Below, piece by piece: positions 9,926-16,225 of a stretch of 64,000 nucleotides of DNA. The stretch lies in the NCBI RefSeq assembly GCF_029490015.1, contig NZ_CP120468.1:1674001-1738000 (forward strand), given 5' to 3'. The notes beneath the pieces were generated by a model that saw only the letters and a program-made list of their open reading frames with translations, ran no database searches and was not told the DNA's origin. The stretch's first letter is position 1. Every line of letters starts with the position of its first letter. The position numbers and the translations under genes were made by a program. Origin of the DNA: Halobaculum limi (GTDB taxonomy: Archaea; Halobacteriota; Halobacteria; Halobacteriales; Haloferacaceae).

Positions 9926-10016
9926 AGGCGACCGTACCCGGTCGCGGGCCAAAGGCCTGCCGCCAGCACTCGAGACGAGCGCCGGAGTTATTCGCTGGTG
10001 GAGCAAACTGTGTGCT

Positions 10017-11132
10017 ATGCCATCACGACGGACGTTTCTCGCTAGTGTAGCGAGTGCGGCGACGGTCGCTACCGCTGGCTGTGTGCAGGTCGGGTCGACC
10101 GACTCCGCGCCGGCCGCGAGCGAGGAGTCGGCGGGTGAAGCGGCGACCGCTGGATCGAACGCGGCCGCCGTCTCACAGTCGTCCGCGACGCAGACTGACG
10201 TGTACCGCTCGACGGTCGGGTCGGTCGTGGGCGTCCTCAATTACGGTGCGACGGGGCCACAGGGGAGTGGCTCCGGGTTCGTCGCCGGCGACGGCTACGT
10301 CGTCACTAACCAGCACGTCGTCGCGGGCGCGGACGACGTGAAACTCCGATTCGAGGGGAACGAGTGGCGAGACGCCCGTATCGTCGGTACGGACGCCTAC
10401 TCCGATCTGGCCGTGTTGCGCGCGCAAGACCGTCCCGAGTCGGCTACGCCGCTGTCGTGGGTCGACACGGACCCGGAACCACCCATCGGCACGCCGGTGA
10501 TGGCTATCGGGTCGCCGTTCGGCTTCAGCGGCTCTGCGTCCACGGGCATCATCTCCGGAATCGACCGCGTCCTCTCGGCGCCGAACAACTTCACCGTCGC
10601 CGACTCCGTCCAGACGGACGCCGCGCTCAACCCCGGCAACTCCGGCGGCCCCATCGTCACGTACGACGGGCGCGTCGTCGCCGTCGCGGCCCGAGGCGGC
10701 GGTGACAACCTCGGCTTCGGCGTCTCGGCGGCGCTCTCGAAGCGGGTCGTCCCCGCCCTCGCCAGCGACGGTGAGTACGATCACTCGTTTATGGGTGTCC
10801 GTCTCCTCGAAGTGACGCCCACTATCGCCGAAGCGTACGGCCTCGACGACGTCGGCGGCGTCCTGATGATCGAAGTAGTGGACGACGGCCCCGCGGCGGG
10901 CACCTTGCAGGGCACGGACGGACAGACGTCGGTCGATGGCGTCTCGGTTCCGACTGGCGGCGACGTCGTCGTCGGCATCGGCGGCCGATCGGTCGAGGTA
11001 CAGGCCGACCTCTCGAACTACCTCGCGCTTGAGACGTCGCCCGGTGACACGGTCCAGTTCACCATCGTCCGCGATGGTCGCGAGCAGACCGTCGAGTTCG
11101 AACTCGGCGAGCGACCCACCCCCGGAGTCTGA
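10017..11132 (+). CDS. HtrA/DegP-type serine protease lipoprotein with PDZ domain
   Basis: A 371-residue exported protease. The N-terminus has a Tat motif (SRRTFLASVAS) followed by a lipobox ending in TAGC (Cys22), so it should be a lipid-anchored protein outside the membrane. A low-complexity Ala/Ser linker (25-60) leads to a trypsin-like S1C domain with the full triad: His100 (VTNQHV), Asp130 (AYSDLAV) and Ser209 (GNSGGP). A single PDZ domain occupies ~265-365. It probably degrades or refolds damaged extracellular proteins. A TATA-like box (GTTATTC, ~9987) lies ~27 bp before ATG 10017. Confidence 0.92.
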   Translation: MPSRRTFLASVASAATVATAGCVQVGSTDSAPAASEESAGEAATAGSNAAAVSQSSATQTDVYRSTVGSVVGVLNYGATGPQGSGSGFVAGDGYVVTNQHVVAGADDVKLRFEGNEWRDARIVGTDAYSDLAVLRAQDRPESATPLSWVDTDPEPPIGTPVMAIGSPFGFSGSASTGIISGIDRVLSAPNNFTVADSVQTDAALNPGNSGGPIVTYDGRVVAVAARGGGDNLGFGVSAALSKRVVPALASDGEYDHSFMGVRLLEVTPTIAEAYGLDDVGGVLMIEVVDDGPAAGTLQGTDGQTSVDGVSVPTGGDVVVGIGGRSVEVQADLSNYLALETSPGDTVQFTIVRDGREQTVEFELGERPTPGV

Positions 11133-12703: not shown

Positions 12704-12745
12704 ATGAGTACCGCAGTCGGTCCTCGACGGAGGTGGCTCGCGTGA
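12704..12745 (+). other. 13-codon upstream reading frame overlapping the TraB start
   Basis: ATG 12704 opens a frame reading MSTAVGPRRRWLA, and its TGA (12743-12745) overlaps the GTG start codon at 12742 in a GTGA junction. The Shine-Dalgarno sequence for the TraB gene (GGAGGT, 12729-12734) lies inside it. This is the layout of a translationally coupled leader, but it is short enough to arise by chance. Confidence 0.3.
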
Positions 12746-14487
12746 GCCGCGACGCGCGGACCGCAGACCCGCCCGACGCATCTCCCGCACCGGGCGGGAC
12801 GCCACAGCCCTCCAATCCGCGCGGCGAGGGGAGCGTTCGCGTCGTCGGGACGGCACACGTCTCGCAGGCCTCCGTCGACGAGGTCGAACAGACGGTCGCC
12901 GAGGAACACCCCGACGTCGTCGCGGTCGAACTCGACGAGGGGCGCTTCCGACAGATGAAGGGTGAGACACCGGACGACCTCGACCCCGGCGACCTCCTCC
13001 AGGGCAACACCGTCTTCCAGTTTCTCGCGTACTGGATGCTCTCGTACGTCCAGACGCGGATGGGTGAGCGGTTCGACATCGACCCCGGCGCAGAACTGCT
13101 CGCGGCCGTCGACGCCGCCGAGGAGCGCGGCATCTCGGTCGCACTCGTCGACCGCGACATCCAGACGACCATCCAGCGGTTCTGGGCGAGTCTCTCGCTG
13201 TTGGAGAAGTTGCGGATGGTCGGCGCACTCGCGTTCGGCGTCACCGACCCCCGTGTCGCCGGCATCACGTTCGGCCTCGTCGTCGGCGTCCTGCTAGGTC
13301 CAGCGGTCGGCTTGTTCGGCGGGAGCGTCGGCATCACCGGCGCAGTCCTCACCCGCGTCGGCGTCGGCGCACTCGTCGGCGCCGTCGCTGGCTACCTCAC
13401 GTACCGCGCACGGGCCGGGACAAGCGGCGGTGATGAGGCGGTCGGGACGACGACACTCGCTCTCGCGGCGGCCGTCGCGGTCGGCGTCGGCGGTGCCGTC
13501 GTCGCAACGGGTGTCGGCGTCGCCACGGTAGCGGGCGTCCTTCCCGGGACGCTCCTCACGCTCGCTGGGAGCCTCGCACTCGGTCTCGTCGGCGGCCTCG
13601 CGGTCGGTGCGGTGGCGGCCGTCGCCATCGACGCACTCGGCATCGCCGCTGCGACGGAGAGCGACGAGTTGGAGGAGTTCGACCCCGACGAACTCACCGA
13701 CACCGATGTCGTGACGGCGATGATGGAGGAGTTCCGCCAGTTCTCGCCCGGCGGCGCGGCGGCGCTCATCGACGAGCGTGACGCGTACATCGCCCACCAA
13801 CTCGTCGGCCTCAGGAACGAGGGGTACGACGTGGTCGCCGTCGTCGGCGCGGGCCACCGCGCGGGCATCGAGTCGTACCTCGAGTCGCCGGAGACGCTCC
13901 CGCCGATGGACTCGCTCATCGGCACCGCGAAGTCGGGCGGCATTCCGTGGGGGAAGATCGCTGCGTTCGGCATCTCCGCGGCGTTCATCGCCTTCTTCCT
14001 CCTGTTGGCGATGGCTGGCGTCCGCAACGAGCAACTGCTGACGCTGTTCGCCGCGTGGTTCCTCATCAACGGCGTGTTCGCCGCGGGCCTCGCCAAACTC
14101 GCTGGCGCACGCTGGCGCTCTGCGGGCGTCGGCGGCGCAGTCGCGTGGATGACCTCAGTGAATCCGCTGCTCGCGCCGGGGTGGTTCACGGGGTACATGG
14201 AACTGCGACACCTGACCGTGAACGTCGCCGACATCGGGACGCTCAACGAACTGCTCTCCGACGAGACGCGACCGATCCGTGATATCGTCTCGGACATGCT
14301 CGACGTGCCGCTGTTCCGCCTCATCGTCGTCGTCGCGGCGACGAACATCGGGAGCGTCATCGCGTCGGTGCTGTTCGCCGCGTACGTCGTCCCCGTCTTC
14401 GCAGGGAGTCTCGACGCCAGTATCACCGACCTGATGATCCAGGGCGCGCGTGAGTCTGCGCGACTCATCTGGGGGGCCGTCGCGTGA
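12742..14487 (+). CDS. TraB/Tiki-family membrane metalloprotease-like protein
   Basis: A 581-residue protein of the TraB/PrgY/Tiki family. The two hallmark GX2H metal motifs are present: GTAH (36-39) and GAGH (369-372). The family Glu lies in VVAVELDEGR, and ALIDERDAYIAHQL precedes the second motif. The C-terminal ~180 residues hold several membrane helices. Unusually, a Gly/Ala/Val-rich hydrophobic block (~168-305) sits inside the N-terminal domain, where ordinary relatives have a short linker. The GTG at 12742 was chosen because a perfect GGAGGT lies 7 nt upstream; GTG 12733 is an alternative. Its stop overlaps the start of an M50 protease gene. Confidence 0.88.
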   Translation: MSRDARTADPPDASPAPGGTPQPSNPRGEGSVRVVGTAHVSQASVDEVEQTVAEEHPDVVAVELDEGRFRQMKGETPDDLDPGDLLQGNTVFQFLAYWMLSYVQTRMGERFDIDPGAELLAAVDAAEERGISVALVDRDIQTTIQRFWASLSLLEKLRMVGALAFGVTDPRVAGITFGLVVGVLLGPAVGLFGGSVGITGAVLTRVGVGALVGAVAGYLTYRARAGTSGGDEAVGTTTLALAAAVAVGVGGAVVATGVGVATVAGVLPGTLLTLAGSLALGLVGGLAVGAVAAVAIDALGIAAATESDELEEFDPDELTDTDVVTAMMEEFRQFSPGGAAALIDERDAYIAHQLVGLRNEGYDVVAVVGAGHRAGIESYLESPETLPPMDSLIGTAKSGGIPWGKIAAFGISAAFIAFFLLLAMAGVRNEQLLTLFAAWFLINGVFAAGLAKLAGARWRSAGVGGAVAWMTSVNPLLAPGWFTGYMELRHLTVNVADIGTLNELLSDETRPIRDIVSDMLDVPLFRLIVVVAATNIGSVIASVLFAAYVVPVFAGSLDASITDLMIQGARESARLIWGAVA

Positions 14488-15143
14488 GCGGCGCCAGCCT
14501 CACGGGGACGGTCCGCAGGCTCACCTTCAGCGGGCGCGAACTACGCGACTTCCTGCTGGCGTGGGTGGCGCTGTCGGTCGCGTTCACCGTCTTCTTCGCC
14601 GGCGGCGGAACGACGGTCATCAACAACCTCGCGCTCGGCGCGTACGGCACGCTCGGCGGCCTGTTCGTCGTGAGCCTCCTCACCGCTGGCGTGGCGTTCC
14701 TCCTGCACGAACTCGCACACAAGGTCGTCGCGGTGCGCTACGGCCAGCGGGCGGCGTTCCGCGCCGACTACGGGATGCTCTTCCTCGCGGTCGTCGCCGC
14801 GACGGCTGGCTTCCTGTTCGCCGCGCCCGGCGCGGTCCACCACCAGGGACGGATCACCCAGCGACAGAACGGCCTCATCGCGCTGGCGGGCCCAGTCGTC
14901 AACCTCGTGCTCGCAGTCGTGTTCGCGCCGTTGCTCCTCCTCGGCCTCGCCGGATTCTCGGGAATCCTGCTCACCGTCGGCACGTACGGCGTCGCGGTGA
15001 ACCTCCTCTTGGCGGCGTTCAACCTCATCCCGTTCGGCCCACTCGACGGCGCGACCGTCCGGGCGTGGTCGACGCCGGTGTGGCTGGGCGTGTTCATTCC
15101 GAGCGCTGTGGTGGCAGTGTTGTTCGCGTTTATGCTCATTTGA
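14484..15143 (+). CDS. M50 site-2-protease-type zinc metalloprotease
   Basis: A 219-residue integral membrane protease. The zinc motif HELAH (in FLLHELAHKVVA, ~75-79) and the distal LIPFGPLDG motif (third ligand Asp, ~185-193) are both present, in membrane helices as expected. Members cut substrates within the membrane. The start GTG 14484 overlaps the stop of the TraB gene in a GTGA junction, so translation is almost certainly coupled. The two predicted membrane metalloproteases may therefore work as one unit. There is no PDZ or CBS domain. Confidence 0.92.
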   Translation: MSGASLTGTVRRLTFSGRELRDFLLAWVALSVAFTVFFAGGGTTVINNLALGAYGTLGGLFVVSLLTAGVAFLLHELAHKVVAVRYGQRAAFRADYGMLFLAVVAATAGFLFAAPGAVHHQGRITQRQNGLIALAGPVVNLVLAVVFAPLLLLGLAGFSGILLTVGTYGVAVNLLLAAFNLIPFGPLDGATVRAWSTPVWLGVFIPSAVVAVLFAFMLI

Positions 15144-15202: not shown

Positions 15203-16225
15203 ATGGGAGACGACCCCGCGCACGGCGACGGCGCGGACGCAGACGGCGAGGACACCGACGACCAACTGACCTACGCGGACGCCGGCGTCGACATCGACGC
15301 CAGCGAGGCCGCGACCGCGGCGCTCGTCTCGGCTGTCGGCGCGGGCGACGCCGAGGGGAGCGACTACGCGGGCCTCCTCGACATCGGCGACCGCTATCTC
15401 GCCTTGGCGACCGACGGCGTCGGGACGAAACTGCTCGTGGCGGAGGCGCTCTCCGACTACTCGACGGTCGGCATCGACTGCATCGCGATGAACGCGAACG
15501 ATCTGGTCGCCGCCGGCGTCGACCCGGTCGCGTTCGTCGACTACCTCGCAGTCGAGGAACCCGACGAGACGTTCTCCGAGCAAGTCGGCGCTGGCTTGCG
15601 CGAGGGCGCAGACCGCGCGGGCGTCGAACTCGTCGGCGGCGAGACGGCCGTGATGCCCGACGTGATCAAAGGACTCGACCTGGCGGGTACCTGCGCCGGC
15701 CTCGCCGCGAAAGACGCCGTCTTCGACGGCGAAGCAGAACCCGGTGACGCGCTGGTTGGGTGGGCCTCCTCGGGCATCCACTCGAATGGCCTGACGCTCG
15801 CTCGTGAGGCGGCCACCCGCGACCACGCGTACACCGACCCGTGCCCGTTCGACGGCTACGACACCGTCGGGGAGGCGCTCCTCGAACCCACGCGCATCTA
15901 CGCCGACCTGCTCGGCCCGATGCGCGACCACGGCGTCCACGGCGCGGCCCACGTCACGGGCGGCGGGTGGACCAACCTCGAACGCCTCGGTGAGTTCCAC
16001 TACGACGTGACCGACCCGTGGCCGGTTCAGCCTGTGTTCGAGTTCGTGCAATCGGAGGGCAACGTCGCCGACGAGGAGATGCACCGCACGTTCAACATGG
16101 GGACCGGGTTCGTCGCGGCGCTCGACCCGGCACAGGCCGAGTCGCTGGCCGAGGCGACCGACGGGCGTGTGATCGGCACCGTCGAGGAGGGAGACGGCGT
16201 CTCCATCCGCGGCCTCGACCTGTAA
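15203..16225 (+). CDS. purM: phosphoribosylformylglycinamidine cyclo-ligase
   Basis: A 340-residue PurM, which closes FGAM to AIR in purine synthesis using ATP. Family landmarks are DGVGTKLLVA (~71-80), IAMNANDLVAAG (~93-104, metal and ATP region), LVGGETAVMP, WASSGIHSNGLTL, and HVTGGGWTNLER. A 25-residue acidic, Asp-rich extension precedes the core. ATG 15203 follows a 59-bp gap from the M50 gene with a weak TATA-like CTTTTG ~30 bp upstream, so it probably has its own promoter. Confidence 0.95.
   Translation: MGDDPAHGDGADADGEDTDDQLTYADAGVDIDASEAATAALVSAVGAGDAEGSDYAGLLDIGDRYLALATDGVGTKLLVAEALSDYSTVGIDCIAMNANDLVAAGVDPVAFVDYLAVEEPDETFSEQVGAGLREGADRAGVELVGGETAVMPDVIKGLDLAGTCAGLAAKDAVFDGEAEPGDALVGWASSGIHSNGLTLAREAATRDHAYTDPCPFDGYDTVGEALLEPTRIYADLLGPMRDHGVHGAAHVTGGGWTNLERLGEFHYDVTDPWPVQPVFEFVQSEGNVADEEMHRTFNMGTGFVAALDPAQAESLAEATDGRVIGTVEEGDGVSIRGLDL

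What the first reader, a model, noticed from the sequence alone, without database searches (positions are those of the whole stretch)
12742..15143. Co-translated pair of predicted membrane metalloproteases (TraB/Tiki and M50)
The TraB gene has both GX2H motifs (GTAH, GAGH) and its stop overlaps the M50 start in a GTGA junction. Both enzymes would act at or in the membrane. A shared two-protease module, perhaps cutting a common membrane substrate in sequence, is not a system I know as described.
Basis: partly seen in the sequence, partly recalled or inferred. Interest (0 to 1): 0.7.

Follow-up and report, generated by a model that had tools for sequence, protein, structure and literature searches.

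The report
Conserved archaeal TraB–site-2-protease gene pair
Two neighbouring genes in this salt-loving archaeon encode membrane enzymes predicted to cut peptides, and the pair has been kept side by side across almost all haloarchaea and recurs in methanogens, so the two probably work on the same job, which nobody has yet tested.

Summary
TraB (12742-14487) and a small M50 protease (14484-15143) overlap by GTGA, and both carry intact active-site motifs. The pair is not local. It is linked in 20 of 20 genera sampled in the window's own family and in 61 of 64 genomes from the other haloarchaeal families. A 4-nt overlap occurs in 40 of 56 loci. The M50-purM link beside it is much looser. Beyond haloarchaea (same phylum), TraB is flanked by the same small M50 and/or, more often, by a second site-2 protease with two CBS domains upstream. 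Some lineages show CBS-S2P > TraB > small S2P > aspartokinase > purM, and six Archaeoglobus-type loci show CBS-S2P > TraB > archaemetzincin. The TraB belongs to the same TIGR00261 subfamily as enterococcal PrgY, which acts on a peptide released by the M50 protease Eep. Charge bias puts both active sites on the cytosolic face, so a classical outside-first site-1/site-2 cascade is unlikely. Most likely the pair is a membrane peptide-processing and clearance module. Substrate, TraB catalysis and physical interaction are untested, and a mirror-tree test gave no support beyond shared ancestry. No description of the module was found in the papers held.

The parts
12742..14487 (+). TraB-family protein, 581 aa: TIKI-fold catalytic domain in two halves, hydrophobic insert between them, C-terminal membrane domain
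   Evidence: TIGR00261 239.6 bits, PF01963 98.5 bits; model pLDDT 88.5; best fold match is the TraB family protein of Tetrahymena complex IV, Z 13.3-13.9
12729..12735 (+). Shine-Dalgarno-like GGAGGTG before the TraB start
   Evidence: read directly
12847..12858 (+). first GX2H motif, GTAH (residues 36-39)
   Evidence: GT[AS]H found in 81 of 86 TraB sequences; the other five appear truncated or mis-started in my extraction
12928..12930 (+). conserved Glu63 (VELD)
   Evidence: invariant in 64 of 64 TraB sequences
13249..13635 (+). hydrophobic insert (residues 170-298, four helices in the model) splitting the catalytic domain
   Evidence: four predicted TM segments in 30 of 55 haloarchaeal TraBs, two in 10, three in 8, none in 6; none in 29 of 31 non-haloarchaeal ones; helices in the model
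13846..13857 (+). second GX2H motif, GAGH (residues 369-372)
   Evidence: invariant; 86 of 86
13948..14409 (+). C-terminal membrane domain of TraB (residues 403-556), with a conserved broken helix TSxNPLLAPGW
   Evidence: model helices 403-424, 429-453, 458-473/479-488, 523-556; G480, E487, N535, G537 invariant
14484..14487 (+). GTGA overlap of TraB stop and M50 start
   Evidence: read directly; 4-nt overlap in 40 of 56 haloarchaeal loci
14484..15143 (+). small M50 (site-2 protease core only), 219 aa
   Evidence: PF02163 36 bits; model pLDDT 94.5; the top matches are RseP, SpoIVFB and MjS2P, Z 7.8-8.9
14706..14720 (+). HELAH zinc motif (residues 75-79)
   Evidence: H75, E76, H79 invariant in 49 of 49
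15021..15050 (+). NLIPFGPLDG, second S2P motif (residues 180-189)
   Evidence: N180, P183, D188, G189 invariant in 49 of 49
15203..16225 (+). purM, the next gene; conserved neighbour but more loosely linked
   Evidence: TIGR00878 309 bits; found in 48 of 63 loci, gap under 300 nt in 21 of them

Best explanation
The two genes encode an archaeal membrane peptide-processing and clearance module. The M50 protein is a minimal site-2 protease that cuts transmembrane segments or leftover signal peptides near the cytosolic face. TraB, anchored by its own membrane domain with its catalytic domain in the cytosol, then destroys or trims the hydrophobic peptides released, much as PrgY/TraB disposes of the pheromone peptide that the M50 protease Eep releases in enterococci. 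Shown: gene order, overlap, family membership, conserved motifs, association with site-2 proteases across several lineages. Inferred: shared substrate, order of cuts, catalysis by TraB, topology (from charge bias and the predicted helices).
For: Linkage in 20/20 own-family genera and 61/64 other haloarchaeal genomes. In non-haloarchaea TraB lies within 500 nt of an upstream CBS-type S2P in 26/40 loci and of a downstream small S2P in 6/40; in the second, named set the counts are 44/74 and 4/74. Archaemetzincin follows TraB in six Archaeoglobus-type loci. Active-site residues of both proteins are invariant or nearly so. The window TraB and pCF10 PrgY score above cut-off in the same subfamily, and archaeal TraB aligns with enterococcal TraB over 98% of its length at 33% identity. 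Eep releases and PrgY is thought to degrade the same pheromone peptide (PMC7117660). K+R bias puts the TraB domain and the HEXXH end of M50 on the cytosolic side.
Against: TraB and M50 are unlinked in three basal haloarchaea and in the Methanomicrobia-like families sampled, so adjacency is not obligatory. Partial mirror-tree correlation TraB-M50 (0.37) is no higher than TraB-PurM (0.39). The PrgY literature places its action outside the cell, against the cytosolic topology inferred here. No archaeal TraB has shown catalysis; a TraB deletion in Methanococcus maripaludis could be made and showed no transformation defect (PMC10133366).
Confidence: 0.42

Rival explanations
1. TraB is not a protease here but a membrane partner or adaptor of site-2 proteases: it docks on the S2P, presents substrates or gates access, and keeps its TIKI-fold pocket for binding or another hydrolysis.
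For: The membrane domain of TraB is strongly conserved (G480, E487, N535, G537 invariant). TraB stands next to two different S2P types. The fold family includes a metal-independent protease, esterases and an inactive toxin domain (PMC6254334), and the structural neighbours found include erythromycin esterase.
Against: H39, E63 and H372 are kept in nearly all or all TraBs, which argues for catalysis; TraB also occurs alone, away from any M50.
Confidence: 0.25
2. Sequential regulated proteolysis: TraB makes the first cut in a membrane protein, creating the substrate for the M50 protease, which releases a regulator.
For: Two protease-like genes in one transcription unit; S2P homologues often work after a first cut (PMC9263693).
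Against: Charge bias puts the TraB catalytic domain on the cytosolic side, whereas a site-1 cut is normally on the outer side (own knowledge). No conserved anti-sigma-like or regulator gene sits beside the pair.
Confidence: 0.13
3. No functional link: TraB and the M50 are housekeeping genes in an old conserved gene block with purM, co-inherited by synteny.
For: The order TraB > small M50 > (aspartokinase) > purM is probably ancestral and vertically inherited; purM remains near in 48 of 63 loci; the mirror-tree test shows no excess over purM.
Against: Within the same loci TraB-M50 stays within 300 nt in 56 of 57 (the exception is a hit-joining artefact; its gap is 92 nt) while M50-purM does so in 21 of 48 found; other flanking genes are mostly lost. 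TraB is linked to a second, different protease elsewhere.
Confidence: 0.17

Closest known systems
Eep and PrgY/TraB of enterococcal pheromone plasmids
   Same: An M50 membrane protease plus a TIGR00261 TraB protein whose peptide substrate is shared; PrgY of pCF10 matches the archaeal TraB end to end, membrane domain included (PMC7117660).
   Different: In enterococci eep is chromosomal and traB/prgY plasmid-borne; here both are adjacent chromosomal genes, nearly universal in haloarchaea, and no pheromone is known.
MjS2P (MJ0392) and CBS-type archaeal site-2 proteases
   Same: Same M50 core and motifs; MjS2P is the only convincing sequence match in the PDB (3b4r, E 9e-7) and among the top fold matches.
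   Different: The window protein lacks CBS domains and forms a separate small type (about 205-230 aa); the CBS type in this genome is probably the unlinked gene at C1:285670, 1.4 Mb away (its CBS domains were not checked).
Tiki / TRABD (eukaryotic TIKI/TraB family)
   Same: Same Pfam family and fold; Tiki is described as a membrane-tethered metalloprotease (PMC12329661).
   Different: Archaeal TraB has a multi-pass C-terminal membrane domain and, in most haloarchaea, a membrane insert within the catalytic domain; no protease activity has been shown.
RseP / SpoIVFB (bacterial site-2 proteases)
   Same: Fold and zinc motif; Z 7.5-8.9.
   Different: No PDZ or CBS domain, no sigma-factor context.

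Membership tests
M50 site-2 protease family | PF02163 match over the curated cut-off | tested here: met
   36 bits against a cut-off of 27.2
M50 site-2 protease family | HEXXH and a distal NxxPxxxxDG motif | tested here: met
   HELAH and NLIPFGPLDG; invariant in 49 of 49 relatives
M50 site-2 protease family | S2P core fold | tested here: met
   model pLDDT 94.5; RseP, SpoIVFB, MjS2P rank first at Z 7.8-8.9 over 130-136 residues, only about 1 above unrelated helical matches; Foldseek E 0.03
M50 site-2 protease family | intramembrane proteolysis | not testable with these tools
   needs a biochemical assay
TraB subfamily TIGR00261 (PrgY/TraB) | score over the curated cut-off | tested here: met
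   239.6 bits against 178.35
TraB subfamily TIGR00261 (PrgY/TraB) | two GX2H motifs and the conserved Glu | tested here: met
   GTAH, E63, GAGH
TraB subfamily TIGR00261 (PrgY/TraB) | C-terminal multi-pass membrane domain | tested here: met
   model helices 403-556; aligned with PrgY
TIKI metalloproteases (Tiki) | metal-dependent proteolysis | not testable with these tools
   no assay; the fold family includes metal-independent and inactive members
TIKI metalloproteases (Tiki) | TIKI fold | tested here: met
   TraB family protein of Tetrahymena complex IV Z 13.3-13.9; HopBA1 and EreC next at Z 6.5 and 6.1
site-1/site-2 regulated intramembrane proteolysis cascade | first protease acts on the extracytoplasmic side | tested here: inconclusive
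   charge bias favours a cytosolic TraB domain: K+R 3.3 before the first C-terminal TM against 0.14 after it; no experiment
Eep/PrgY pheromone system | a peptide shared by both enzymes | not tested
   no candidate peptide gene was sought or found

The most novel reading that the evidence does not exclude
Euryarchaea carry a multi-protease membrane module (CBS-regulated site-2 protease, TraB, small site-2 protease, and archaemetzincin in Archaeoglobus relatives) that makes and destroys peptides derived from signal peptides or membrane stubs, an archaeal counterpart of Eep/PrgY that could include peptide signalling between cells.
Probability: 0.12. Interest if true: 0.85.

Novelty: new variant of a known kind. 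Interest (0 to 1): 0.52.

Why it matters
Haloarchaeal membrane proteases have few known substrates, and the review of H. volcanii membrane proteases lists its four M50 homologues as function unknown and does not mention TraB (PMC9263693). A near-universal gene pair gives a partner to test for one of them. It links, in one operon, two families whose only experimentally connected members act on the same peptide in enterococcal pheromone control, so it makes the question 'what do archaeal TraB proteins do?' directly testable in a genetically tractable host.

Tried and rejected
Mirror-tree test: partial correlation TraB-M50 given PurM 0.37 (permutation p 0.0005), but TraB-PurM given M50 0.39, so no excess co-evolution. 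Foldseek against the PDB gave no E under 0.001 for either model; the VIA-align second look was needed. Paper searches for TraB with haloarchaea and M50, or with Tiki, archaea and metalloprotease, found nothing; broader ones found no description of the pair. The archaeal fusion survey does not mention TraB. The Bazan 2013 and Chandler 2005 papers are not held. Plasmids carry no relative of the small M50. The purM-operon artefact idea was kept as a rival because purM really is an old neighbour. No natural TraB-M50 fusion was noticed in the hit tables, but none was searched for systematically. Other archaeal phyla could not be sampled: the one genome-contig scan filled up with close relatives of the query from the same phylum.

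Full report
OBSERVATION. TraB runs 12742-14487 and M50 14484-15143, both on the plus strand, and they share GTGA at 14484-14487. TraB scores 239.6 bits to TIGR00261 (cut-off 178.35) and 98.5 bits to PF01963; M50 scores 36 bits to PF02163 (cut-off 27.2). GTAH, GAGH, HELAH and NLIPFGPLDG are all present. A Shine-Dalgarno-like GGAGGTG precedes the TraB start at 12742 (read directly).

CONSERVATION IN HALOARCHAEA. Both genes are present in 391 of 391 haloarchaeal genomes searched. In 64 genomes from families other than the window's own, TraB is followed directly by the M50 on the same strand in 61 (hit-edge gaps -10 to 147 nt). All 20 genera sampled from the window's own family are linked too. The three exceptions, in families f5 and f11, branch at the base of haloarchaea in the TraB tree and keep the M50 next to purM. 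The stop and start overlap by exactly 4 nt in 40 of 56 loci.

WITHIN-LOCUS CONTROL. Across 57 linked loci TraB-M50 lies within 300 nt in 56; the exception, L134, is a hit-joining artefact (one search gives 92 nt for that genome). M50-purM does so in only 21 of the 48 loci where purM was found. Other flanking genes of the window are found in 1 to 32 of 63 neighbourhoods. So TraB-M50 is held much more tightly than its surroundings, although purM is also an old neighbour.

BEYOND HALOARCHAEA. TraB is nearly universal in the phylum (192 of 197 genomes). In 40 neighbourhoods from other families it has an M50 upstream within 500 nt in 26 and a small M50 downstream in 6; in a second, named set the counts are 44 of 74 and 4 of 74. 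The two sets overlap in part (for example L165 and L186 are the same locus). The upstream M50 carries two CBS domains, like MjS2P. Four loci, one of them from a Methanocellales genome, show CBS-S2P > TraB > small S2P > aspartokinase > purM, which would explain the haloarchaeal order TraB > M50 > purM as an inherited remnant. In six Archaeoglobus-type loci TraB is followed by an archaemetzincin (PF07998 104 bits). Methanomicrobia-like families have no M50 beside TraB in the stretches read. On the TraB tree each linkage needs at least four changes. Only the phylum of the window was sampled.

ANATOMY. The M50 model (pLDDT 94.5) has a bare site-2 protease core; RseP, SpoIVFB and MjS2P are the best structural matches, Z 7.8-8.9, though unrelated helical chains follow closely at up to Z 7.7. 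The TraB model (pLDDT 88.5) matches the TraB family protein of Tetrahymena complex IV, Z 13.3-13.9, then HopBA1 and the esterase EreC. Most haloarchaeal TraBs carry a hydrophobic insert between the two catalytic halves (four predicted TM segments in 30 of 55, two in 10, three in 8, none in 6), absent from 29 of 31 others. An even number keeps both halves on one side. Positive charges cluster before the first C-terminal TM helix (3.3 K+R) and not after it (0.14), and after the HELAH helix of the M50 (2.8). Both active sites are therefore predicted on the cytosolic face (inference).

LINK TO A KNOWN PAIR. TraB-family proteins of enterococcal plasmids align with the archaeal TraB over 98% of the query at 33% identity. 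The pCF10 gene between traC and prgX, which I take to be prgY, belongs to the same TIGR00261 subfamily and aligns through the membrane domain. In that system the M50 protease Eep releases the pheromone peptide from a lipoprotein signal peptide and PrgY is thought to degrade it (PMC7117660). This is the only case I found in which members of both families have been tied to one substrate. It is a guide to what the archaeal pair works like, not proof that it is the same system; the PrgY literature also places its action outside the cell.

WHAT IS NOT SHOWN. No catalysis by any archaeal TraB. Metal dependence varies in the fold family: Tiki is metal-dependent, one bacterial member is metal-independent and another inactive (PMC6254334). 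Mirror-tree correlation does not exceed that with PurM. TraB and its neighbour MMJJ_07800 (annotated as a CBS domain protein) could each be deleted in Methanococcus maripaludis without a transformation defect (PMC10133366). Substrate and physical interaction are unknown.

VERDICT. The pair is real and old, and TraB's recurring association with site-2 proteases is, as far as the held papers show, undescribed. The most likely function is membrane peptide processing and clearance, stated with moderate confidence.

Noticed in passing
L146, L147, L148, L149, L151, L154: In Archaeoglobus-type loci TraB is followed directly by an archaemetzincin (M54), giving CBS-S2P > TraB > archaemetzincin.
   Followed up: partly
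L165, L166, L176 (TraB neighbourhoods): A PRC-barrel gene and a Thg1 tRNA-His guanylyltransferase gene lie divergently just upstream of CBS-S2P > TraB > small S2P > aspartokinase > purM.
   Followed up: no
L141, L143, L145: Basal haloarchaea keep the small M50 beside purM while TraB lies elsewhere.
   Followed up: partly
window 13249-13635: A membrane insert inside the TraB catalytic domain varies from none to four predicted TM segments among haloarchaea.
   Followed up: partly
window 9993-11132: HtrA-like serine protease with a twin-arginine and lipobox-like N-terminus (SRRTFLASVASAATVATAGC), near the pair in only a few relatives.
   Followed up: no
G004, G029, G064, G136 and others: Shorter second TraB paralogues (open frames about 255-380 aa) occur in some family f4 genomes.
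   Followed up: no
G377:C68, G032:C1:569192-570697, G212:C1:1860171-1861667: A second full-length, divergent TraB (about 35-43% identity) exists in a few genomes; its neighbours were not examined.
   Followed up: no
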